A stretch of 64,000 bases of DNA from Leucobacter ruminantium (GTDB lineage: Bacteria; Actinomycetota; Actinomycetes; Actinomycetales; Microbacteriaceae): contig NZ_JAGDYL010000019.1 in the NCBI RefSeq assembly GCF_017565705.1, forward strand, positions 1 to 64,000. Direction: 5' to 3'. Both the position numbers and the translations under genes were made by a program. This document shows, piece after piece, positions 55,561 through 57,022 of the stretch; within the stretch, counting starts at the first letter, position 1; each line of letters begins with the position of its first letter. The notes beneath the pieces are model-generated. The model worked only from the letters and a program-made list of their open reading frames with translations, ran no database searches and was not told the origin of the DNA.

Positions 55561-55708
55561 TCATTCAGGGAGCCGCAGCGCCACCGGCGTGGCACCGGTG
55601 AACTGCAGCCCGGGGAGGCCGACGCGCTGTGCCGCATCGCCCGGCGAGACGCCGGCGCGGATGAGCGAGCCGAGAGCGTCGGCCTGGTCTTTCGTGGCGC
55701 CGGTCAGC
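55561..55708 (-). pseudogene. Out-of-frame C-terminal end of the portal gene
   Basis: In the frame one base off from the portal, the sequence after the repeat reads ASELTGATKDQADALGSLIR then AGVSPGDAAQRVGLPG and ends PVALRLPE. This is the usual end of actinophage portal proteins. It has no start of its own and can be reached only if the repeat number changes or ribosomes shift. Confidence 0.75.
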
Positions 55709-57022
55709 TCACTGGCTGGCTGGCTGGCTGGCTGGCTGGCTGGGCGAGGATGCCTCAAGCGCGAGCCTCGCCCGACGATCCAACGCGATCCCCGCCGACT
55801 CAAGCGCGTCCTGCCGCGACCACCCCGGAAGCATCTGGAACAGGCGTCCGAGATCCGCGCCGACGACGTCGAGCTTCGAGATCGCATCAGACACCTGCGC
55901 GAGCGACCACGACTGCACGTTCGCCCACGACACCGCATCCGTCAACGCGCTCGCCGCCGCGTCGTCGCCGAGGATCCTTGCTCCAGTGCGCAGCGCGAGC
56001 TCGTAGCCCTCGCCGAGCGCCGCTCGCCGGTCGCCGATGTTCCGGTGATACCCGGACTCCGCCGCCGCGATGCCTTCCGCGGACATGTTGACCACCGCGC
56101 CGAGCAGGTAGTGCGGCGGCACCTGCAGCACCGCGGCGAGATGCTTCACGTGCGCTTCGAGCGCCGCGACCATCTTCGTGGGATCCGCGGCCTCGAAGGT
56201 GCCGAACCTGACGGCCTCGCCTTCCGCGCCGGGGGCATGGATGAGCGAATCGACCGCGACACGGACCTCACCGAGGGTTCCGCCGGCGCCCCACTTCTGC
56301 GGGAATGCGCCGTAACGCTGGATCATCTGCAGCGCGAACGTGGCGTCCACGATGCGCTTGTAGATCGGGATCCCCGGCTCTACTGACGACAGCGGCTCAC
56401 CTTCGGATGCGAGCGTGTTCGAGATCCGCACAACCGGCGTGAAGCCGAGATTGTGAGGGGACTCATCCACGTTCTGCGGGCGTGCGGGCGACCCGTCGAA
56501 TCGGTACGAGGCCTCGCCGTCGAAGGCGTACCACTGGGACTCCCAGAACTTCGGCCCCGACTTCGTCGCCCCGATCCGGTACAGCACGAACTCGGGGAAC
56601 TCATCCCACGGGTCCGTGTAGATCGCGTAGGTGTTGTGCGCGCTCATCGGCCGCATCACCACGCCGCCATCAGCGGCCGGGAGCAGCATCAGGAAGCTCT
56701 TACCGAGCCCCACCGCTTCCTTCGTGGAGACGCCCTGACGGCCGTCCATGCCGTTCGCGCGCCACACGCGCGCCCAGACGTCCTCGTTCTCGTAGCCGTT
56801 GATAATGCAGCCCTGCGCGATTGCGTCGCGCGAGAACCCAAGCCAGGGGCCGCCGGACTTGTTCAGCAGATCCCGATACTCGGCGTCCGCGCCCTCCGGC
56901 ATCCACGTCTTCAGCACCTTCCCGTCGATGTGACGCTGCAGCAGGCGGAGGCGCATCCACTCCTGGCGGGCATCCTTCATCGCCTCGGCGCACTTCTCAC
57001 CGAGCTCGACATCATTGAGCAT
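55709..57022 (-). CDS. Portal protein, C-terminus cut off by a frameshifting (CCAG)8 tract
   Basis: This 437-residue reading frame from ATG 57022 is a Gp6-type portal. It includes LRLLQRHIDGKVLKTWMP, RMWRAN-like GYENEDVWARVW and QVPPHYLLG near 335, plus AEGIAAAESGYHRNIGDRR. Portals form the dodecameric DNA channel. It ends prematurely in SQPASQPASQ inside eight CCAG units; the natural end lies in another frame. Seven (or ten) units would give a protein of 485 (or 489) residues. The ATG overlaps the terminase stop (TGATG). Confidence 0.9.
   Translation of the reverse strand: MLNDVELGEKCAEAMKDARQEWMRLRLLQRHIDGKVLKTWMPEGADAEYRDLLNKSGGPWLGFSRDAIAQGCIINGYENEDVWARVWRANGMDGRQGVSTKEAVGLGKSFLMLLPAADGGVVMRPMSAHNTYAIYTDPWDEFPEFVLYRIGATKSGPKFWESQWYAFDGEASYRFDGSPARPQNVDESPHNLGFTPVVRISNTLASEGEPLSSVEPGIPIYKRIVDATFALQMIQRYGAFPQKWGAGGTLGEVRVAVDSLIHAPGAEGEAVRFGTFEAADPTKMVAALEAHVKHLAAVLQVPPHYLLGAVVNMSAEGIAAAESGYHRNIGDRRAALGEGYELALRTGARILGDDAAASALTDAVSWANVQSWSLAQVSDAISKLDVVGADLGRLFQMLPGWSRQDALESAGIALDRRARLALEASSPSQPASQPASQ
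55712..55743. repeat. Tetranucleotide tract (CTGG)8 / (CCAG)8
   Basis: Eight perfect CTGG units on the plus strand (CCAG on the coding strand) lie at the 3' part of the portal gene. Tracts of this kind slip during replication, so unit number is expected to vary. Confidence 0.95.

What the first reader, a model, noticed from the sequence alone, without database searches (positions are those of the whole stretch)
55561..55743. (CCAG)8 tract puts the portal gene out of frame: contingency switch or prophage decay
With eight units the portal stops inside the repeat. With seven or ten it would read into a conserved 50-residue portal end. Tetranucleotide tracts are typical of phase-variable genes, but are very unusual in a phage portal. 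Slippage could switch the prophage between viable and defective states.
Basis: partly seen in the sequence, partly recalled or inferred. Interest (0 to 1): 0.75.

Follow-up and report, generated by a model that had tools for sequence, protein, structure and literature searches.

The report
Slippage switch on phage portal tail-end
A short repeated DNA stretch in this prophage, of a kind prone to gaining or losing units, decides whether its portal protein (the gate through which phage DNA enters the head) carries an extra 50-residue end, and slippage-prone stretches sit at the same place in a number of other, mostly distant phages, which points to a previously unnoticed on/off switch in a virus building block.

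Summary
(CCAG)8 lies at 55712-55743 at the 3' end of an SPP1-type portal gene; the portal stops at the TGA right after it, and a conserved 49-residue end follows in the +1 frame. Two Leucobacter relatives carry the tract with 5 and 4 units, also out of frame, yet the extension is under purifying selection as strong as the portal body. In IMG/VR and phage records the portal/extension junction is a hotspot for slippage-prone repeats (CCAG, poly-G, poly-C), about 35-fold above the rest of the same loci. OFF loci have such a tract in 17 of 21, ON loci in 4 of 105. Two metagenomic contigs, without mismatch over 3798 columns, differ by one CCAG unit and one other base. A model of an in-frame relative puts the extension beyond the main portal fold, and 29 of 31 portal relatives lack it, so the switch more likely toggles a short and a long portal than a dead and a live phage. 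Best explanation: recurrent slipped-strand phase variation of a portal C-terminal module. Recoding is the main rival. Function of the module and switching rate are untested; the scarcity of ON tracts (4 of 24) is unexplained.

The parts
55709..57022 (-). SPP1 gp6-like portal gene, short (OFF) reading frame, 437 aa plus stop
   Evidence: Pfam SPP1_portal 2e-06, 27.5 bits against cut-off 25.5; phrog_104 portal 1.7e-66; ORF
55712..55743 (-). (CCAG)8 tract, reads as PASQ repeats in every frame and holds no stop
   Evidence: Tandem Repeats Finder, 8.0 copies, 100%; relatives with 5 and 4 units
55561..55710 (-). Portal C-terminal extension module (49 aa plus stop), +1 relative to the portal frame with 8 units
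   Evidence: Encoded at the portal 3' end in 35 of 50,697 phage records (frame checked in 10 of them); dN/dS 0.107 and 0.158 against two relatives
55489..55560 (-). Portal-scaffold spacer with conserved hairpin and possible pseudoknot
   Evidence: Alignment of 14 relatives, pair counts; suggestive only
54904..55488 (-). Scaffolding protein gene
   Evidence: Pfam Phage_scaffold 1.2e-06, below its curated cut-off; phrog_4638 7.6e-15
53894..54838 (-). Major capsid protein gene
   Evidence: Pfam Phage_capsid 1.2e-12
57022..58638 (-). Terminase large subunit gene, overlaps the portal start by one base
   Evidence: phrog_9 8.2e-48; no Pfam match
39443..39518 (+). tRNA-Arg, possible prophage attachment site (inferred from position); the integrase lies outside the window at contig position 76318-77301
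   Evidence: ARAGORN; Pfam Phage_integrase 3.4e-10, 95% identical in G006. Attachment sites not mapped

Best explanation
The tract is a slipped-strand (contingency-type) switch placed between a complete portal protein and an optional C-terminal module of about 50 residues. During replication of prophage or phage DNA the tract gains or loses whole units; because a unit is 4 bases (or 1 base in the poly-G/poly-C versions) each change moves the reading frame, so a population would hold short-portal (OFF) and long-portal (ON) genomes. The module, predicted as a helical hairpin on a flexible linker at the end of the portal chain, may tune DNA packaging, genome retention or assembly contacts, or alter recognition of the portal by host defences. 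Shown: tract, frames, unit variation among relatives, selection on the module, recurrence at the same junction, absence of stops in the other late genes that could be compared. Inferred: that slippage is frequent, reversible and selected, that both portal forms make particles, where the module sits in the ring, and what it does.
For: Unit number varies: 8 (window), 5 (two prophage copies of G023), 4 (G006 = L. chironomi). L177 and L171 differ over 1358 alignment columns only by one gap, which is one CCAG unit, 9 against 8; with more flank (L334, L335) 3798 columns hold no mismatch and two gaps, that unit and one single base 2.3 kb away. The out-of-frame extension is under purifying selection: dN/dS 0.107 and 0.158 (window against G023 and L. 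chironomi) against 0.150 and 0.157 for the portal body; null simulation P 5e-5 and 1.5e-4. OFF-OFF pair L251/L254: 13 synonymous and 0 non-synonymous differences in 41 codons; L141/L171 0.08; L244/L245 0.04 with synonymous sites near saturation. Junction tracts: 17 in 11,880 bases against 16 in 395,035 bases elsewhere in the same 88 loci; G/C runs of 7 or more in 9 of 88 junction windows against 6 of 2782 control windows. OFF with tract 17 of 21, ON with tract 4 of 105, Fisher P 7e-14. Offsets of the 24 OFF loci are mixed, +1 in 13 and +2 in 11. Both states occur among relatives: xhp1 G8 ON against L299 G7 OFF, L333 with a short tract ON against L141/L171/L177 OFF. The host has NucS but no MutL match, and NucS does not correct indels (PMC8228993, abstract and passages).
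Against: No reads, no expression data and no measured switching. Tract-bearing loci are ON in only 4 of 24 where one third is expected (P 0.059). Four OFF loci (L245, L288, L312, L314) have only G/C runs of 4 to 6. None of the three Leucobacter tract lengths seen is ON. The G023/L. chironomi pair alone shows no significant constraint on the extension (dN/dS 0.40, 4 differences, P 0.37), and L. chironomi has lost the extension's stop by one base. The survey counts are not phylogenetically independent (L171/L177, G023/L109 and L312/L314 are counted apart), and homopolymer lengths in metagenome contigs can be assembly errors. G023's prophages carry an IS-flanked insert between terminase and portal.
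Confidence: 0.67

Rival explanations
1. Recoding. The ribosome (or RNA polymerase on homopolymers) slips at the tract in a fraction of passes, so an OFF genome makes mostly short and some long portal, as phages do for capsid and tail proteins (T7 10B, Listeria phage PSA).
For: Phage structural proteins often get C-terminal extensions by frameshifting, with apparent indifference to +1 or -1 (PMC5009743, passages). ON is under-represented among tract-bearing loci (4 of 24). Selection on the extension in OFF-OFF pairs is expected. The OFF loci with only short G/C runs (L245, L288, L312, L314) all have the +1 offset.
Against: Offsets differ between close relatives (L. chironomi +1, G023 +2; L171 +1, L177 +2; L251 +1, L254 +2), which no single programmed shift can serve. 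A tetranucleotide tract is not a known slippery site (recalled). No RNA structure beyond chance around the window's tract (z 0.36); other loci were not folded.
Confidence: 0.15
2. Decay or neutral noise. The extension is dispensable, the linker is free to slip, and OFF states are lesions of lysogens.
For: 29 of 31 portal relatives have no detectable extension; lysogens do not need late genes; G023's prophages are interrupted by an IS-flanked insert; L. chironomi's extension has lost its stop.
Against: dN/dS of the extension is close to that of the portal body in the window comparisons and low in other OFF pairs; 15 of 15 other ORFs with a hit in L. chironomi have no stop; tracts of three kinds sit at one junction in distant portals.
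Confidence: 0.1
3. Split gene. In OFF genomes the extension is made as a separate small protein by translational re-initiation after the portal stop.
For: 10 of 21 OFF loci have ATG, GTG or TTG in the extension frame between -45 and +15 of its start after the last stop, for example L313 with an ATGA overlap; L325 has an ATG too.
Against: The window and 10 other OFF loci have none there; it does not explain the tracts or the mixed offsets.
Confidence: 0.06

Closest known systems
neuO of E. coli prophage CUS-3 (heptanucleotide repeat; PMC3046976, passages read)
   Same: Prophage-borne gene switched by a short tandem repeat whose unit is not a multiple of three, with non-matching unit numbers giving truncated protein
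   Different: neuO modifies the host capsule and its repeat is at the 5' end, so OFF is inactive; here the gene is a virion structural gene, the repeat is near its 3' end, and OFF probably leaves a complete portal fold
Tetranucleotide and poly-G/C contingency loci of Haemophilus, Neisseria and Campylobacter (search listings with starts of abstracts)
   Same: Same repeat classes and frame logic
   Different: Those are cellular genes, mostly surface structures; here a phage head-assembly gene
Frameshift-derived C-terminal extensions of phage capsid and tail proteins (T7, T3, A2, PSA; PMC5009743, passages)
   Same: Optional C-terminal extension on a virion protein reached by changing frame
   Different: There the shift is translational; here the DNA tract length varies and both offsets occur between close relatives
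SPP1 gp6-type portals, nearest solved Douge portal (8zdj) and Bxb1 portal (9d94)
   Same: Portal fold; listed structures align within model residues 1-429 of relative L024
   Different: The extension beyond residue 429 is not aligned in the listed rows; Foldseek's alignment to 8zdj is longer (512 columns with gaps), so a counterpart there is not excluded

Membership tests
SSR-mediated phase-variable (contingency) gene | Perfect short tandem repeat, unit not a multiple of 3, in the coding region | tested here: met
   (CCAG)8, 100% match
SSR-mediated phase-variable (contingency) gene | Unit number varies between close relatives | tested here: met
   8/5/4 in the genus; 9 against 8 in L177/L171, no mismatch over 1358 columns
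SSR-mediated phase-variable (contingency) gene | Both ON and OFF states occur in one lineage | tested here: inconclusive
   Yes for xhp1/L299 (85% identical) and L333 against L141/L171/L177 (66-70%); only OFF seen in the Leucobacter lineage
SSR-mediated phase-variable (contingency) gene | Switched coding sequence under purifying selection | tested here: met
   dN/dS 0.107 and 0.158, null P 5e-5 and 1.5e-4; third pair uninformative (0.40, P 0.37)
SSR-mediated phase-variable (contingency) gene | High-frequency reversible switching within a clone | not testable with these tools
   Needs reads or culture
Programmed frameshift product | Conserved direction of shift and conserved slippery site | tested here: not met
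   Offsets +1 and +2 between close relatives; for L245, L288, L312 and L314, all +1, this does not exclude it
Programmed frameshift product | Stimulatory RNA structure | tested here: inconclusive
   z 0.36 for 120 nt around the window's tract; others not folded
SPP1 gp6-like portal | Portal profile match and fold | tested here: met
   Pfam 27.5 bits against cut-off 25.5; phrog_104; model of relative L024, Z 34.9, 398 residues, rmsd 3.8 to 8zdj

The most novel reading that the evidence does not exclude
Phages of actinobacteria have repeatedly put the C-terminal module of their portal under DNA-slippage control, exploiting hosts whose mismatch repair ignores indels, so that each burst carries two portal forms: a bet-hedge inside the packaging motor itself, perhaps against portal-sensing defences such as Avs4 or to vary packaging and genome retention.
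Probability: 0.4. Interest if true: 0.9.

Novelty: new variant of a known kind. Interest (0 to 1): 0.8.

Why it matters
Phase variation by simple repeats is known for cell-surface and modification genes, and in phage DNA for a host-modifying gene such as neuO. A recurrent repeat switch in a core virion gene was not seen in the listed rows of five full-text searches (listings with starts of abstracts only, 20 of 109, 20 of 57, 14 of 14, 15 of 82 and 12 of 12 papers shown). If true, one phage clone makes structurally different packaging gates, and the claim is directly testable: sequence the tract in lysogens and in their particles.

Tried and rejected
Chance repeat: rejected. A conserved programmed frameshift as sole cause: rejected for the CCAG lineages because the offset differs between G023 and L. 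chironomi (98% identical), between L171 and L177 and between L251 and L254. General prophage decay: not supported (of 19 queries, portal included, 16 hit; the two queries 47227-48090 and 43310-45337 did not, and a third, 45313-47240, was badly bounded by me, spanned two overlapping ORFs, held 7 stops by construction and did not hit either). Solved structure of the extension by sequence: none (best E 4.7, unrelated); in the structural second look no listed row covers residues 430-485, which the tool calls barely tested. Pfam and PHROGs gave no family for the extension (window piece, peptide). Rfam around the tract: two matches, both below gathering score. Relatives of L171/L177 by flanking pattern: only those two. 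Phage records near L242, L244, L304 and L141: besides themselves only 68-73% identical matches, so no further tract comparison. Papers on PMBT6 and xhp1: listings only, nothing used. Avs4 and escape: no row of the listing (10 of 164 papers shown) holds Avs4, so the defence idea rests on the title of PDB 8dgf and recall.

Rows dropped before counts: of 98 loci in the first survey 10 were removed as at least 99.5% identical to a kept one, leaving 88; L271 (portal frame broken) and L306 (too little upstream) were not classed. Seven ON loci of the first survey had more than one open frame and were classed by third-position GC. In the second survey 66 newly numbered loci of 68 were examined, 44 kept as not already held, 4 near-identical removed. 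Of 107 loci found with alignment A1 only the best 80 were returned. Of the 35 phage records with the extension I fetched 11 and counted 10; H41 was picked because its annotation looked split. L325, L327 and L330 came from a G-run pattern scan, so they enter the 24 tract-bearing and the 24 OFF loci but not the 17/21 against 4/105 table; L325's extension frame is also open for 305 codons upstream and it was classed OFF by third-position GC. Among the 34 relatives printed, L002 and L006 (the same L. chironomi prophage) and L037 (frame broken at residue 159) were left out of the 31; L028 and L029 have the same printed ends.

Full report
What is there. The window lies in a draft genome of 3.3 Mb in 69 contigs. 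The genus is very probably Leucobacter: same-genus handle G006 carries the relative on a contig of 239,982 bases, the length of the L. chironomi contig of L002. Between a tRNA-Arg at 39443-39518 and an integrase gene at contig position 76318-77301 lies a siphophage-type prophage with terminase, portal, scaffold, capsid, tape measure and endolysin genes on the minus strand. The portal ORF starts at 57022, reads 437 residues and stops at TGA directly after (CCAG)8. The next 49 codons in the +1 frame encode a conserved portal end. The repeat reads PASQ in every frame and holds no stop, so length change matters only through the frame it hands on; in the window and its genus relatives the sequence TGAGCTGA after the tract closes the two wrong frames at once.

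Not chance. It is the only tetranucleotide array of four or more units in the window, against none in 346,312 bases of the same genome; a 4.5-unit CCAG pattern hits only this place in the whole genome.

Relatives in the genus. Of 54 genomes of the genus, 4 have a portal match, 3 of them (the window's own, G023, G006) at 86% identity or more. G023 has two nearly identical prophages, both with 5 units; G006 (L. chironomi, also L002 and L006) has 4 units. All three numbers are out of frame, but the offsets differ: window and L. chironomi +1, G023 +2. Of 398 genomes drawn from the family only G287 was added at E 1e-60; its portal ends without the extension. L. chironomi has one extra base at the end of the extension that removes its stop, a small sign against perfect upkeep.

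Selection. Between the window and the two relatives the extension shows dN/dS 0.107 and 0.158, with 18 of 23 and 18 of 24 differences at third positions, while the portal body shows 0.150 and 0.157. A null with the same number of random changes gives P 5e-5 and 1.5e-4. The G023/L. chironomi pair has only 4 differences and is uninformative (0.40, P 0.37) (all). So the out-of-frame end has been translated for much of its history, most simply since the tract-bearing ancestor.

Is the short portal a dead portal? Of 31 usable relatives found with the portal, 29 have no detectable extension; 25 of them end after 421-447 residues and 4 (L017-L020) run on to 470-485 with other sequence; L024 and L031 carry the extension in frame. 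An AlphaFold model of L024's long portal (mean pLDDT 89.2) has a weakly predicted linker at residues 421-430 (pLDDT 63), then helices 433-445 and 450-456 in blocks of pLDDT 81-90. Listed portal structures align within residues 1-429, best the Douge portal with Z 34.9, 398 residues, rmsd 3.8, model range 1-421; the rest is barely tested there. The OFF product is therefore probably a complete portal without its extra module. The Douge paper (passages only) notes a barrel in that portal that SPP1 lacks; that the barrel is C-terminal is recalled.

The wider pattern. Scanning IMG/VR for (CCAG)6 gave 95 stretches. Five of them (L193, L209, L141, L171, L177) have the same extension right after the tract, in portals that the window portal finds weakly (L209, 26%) or not at all at E 0.01, and all five are out of frame. 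Homology surveys of the extension followed and found the same five contigs again; 10 phage records were added (an eleventh, PMBT6's second record, was not counted). In 88 non-redundant loci of the first survey the junction (-120 to +15) holds 17 slippage-prone tracts in 11,880 bases, the rest of the same loci 16 in 395,035 bases, a 35-fold difference (binomial P 6e-18). The second survey had 5 of 44 loci with a junction tract and 3 tracts in 193,727 bases elsewhere. Together, non-redundant: OFF 21, of which 17 with tract; ON 105, of which 4 with tract (Fisher P 7e-14). Tracts are CCAG in three portal lineages with no mutual tblastx match at 1e-5, poly-G of 7-10 and poly-C of 8-10 elsewhere. 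A frame-blind scan for seven or more G near the extension gave 7 loci: 6 OFF, 1 ON, 4 of the 7 already known. Hosts of the IMG/VR contigs were not determined; the named hosts of extension-bearing phage records are actinobacteria where given as bacteria.

Direct variation. L177 and L171 align over 1358 columns with no mismatch and a single gap: 9 against 8 CCAG units. With more flank (L334, L335) there are 3798 columns, no mismatch and two gaps: that unit, and one base 2.3 kb downstream. Actinomyces phage xhp1 has G8 and is ON; the 85% identical L299 has G7 at the same site and is OFF. L333, related to L141/L171/L177 at 66-70%, has a short tract of four GCCA units and is ON. Two OFF relatives, L251 and L254 (longest perfect arrays 10 and 12 units of CAGC), differ in the compared 41 codons of the extension by 13 synonymous and no non-synonymous changes.

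Mechanism. Slipped-strand mispairing needs a repeat and tolerant repair. The genome has NucS and no MutL match (the control rang in all 14 genomes, in 11 over the cut-off). NucS does not correct short indels (PMC8228993, abstract and passages). That should make repeat tracts mutable in this host, but the rate here is not known.

Against. ON is scarce among tract-bearing loci, 4 of 24 where a third is expected (P 0.059); of nine CCAG loci only L333, with the short tract, is ON. Either ON is disfavoured in lysogens, or some OFF genomes still make the long portal by recoding. Four OFF loci have only G/C runs of 4-6 (L245, L288, L312, L314) and all are +1, where a programmed shift is a fair reading. 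In 10 of 21 OFF loci a possible start codon lies near the start of the extension, in its frame, so separate translation is possible there; the window has none. Counts are of loci, not of independent events.

Verdict. A recurrent, slippage-type switch of a portal C-terminal module, seen in the window in the OFF state; confidence 0.67 (lowered slightly on checking, because start codons are commoner in OFF loci than first written and three tail-region ORFs had no counterpart to compare). What the module does is open. The defence idea is prompted by the title of PDB 8dgf (Avs4 bound to a phage portal) and is recall plus inference, not a result.

Noticed in passing
window 55489-55561 (- strand) and L002, L004, L007, L008, L010, L012, L013, L014, L022, L026, L029, L032, L094: The portal-scaffold spacer holds a conserved hairpin (CCCGC/GCGGG) and a possible H-type pseudoknot (GCAG..CTGC with CGGCA..TGCCG) with a few compensatory changes; counts are suggestive only (3 pairs changed on both sides, 34 of 500 shuffles as high). 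No Rfam family above gathering score.
   Followed up: partly
G023:C1 about 2293760-2303578 and 2803016-2819500 (loci L120-L123): Two prophages in one genome, 99.7-99.9% identical in long pieces, carry an insert flanked by 1.3 kb repeats (IS-like by eye) with a 1158-codon ORF between terminase and portal; in the second place the repeat occurs three times.
   Followed up: partly
window 50593-51440 (- strand): Two overlapping ORFs before the tape measure gene have the usual layout of a tail assembly chaperone frameshift pair (layout recalled; ORFs).
   Followed up: no
L288, L290, L291, L312, L314, L245: Extension out of frame (+1) with only short G/C runs at the junction; L288, L290 and L291 are identical and L312 and L314 97.6% alike. 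Candidates for true programmed frameshifting in portal genes.
   Followed up: partly
L003-L035 (portal relatives): 29 of 31 relatives have no detectable extension, so the module is gained or lost within one portal clade.
   Followed up: partly
window 3599-3662: Degenerate CGGGT pentanucleotide array of about 12.8 units, outside the prophage.
   Followed up: no
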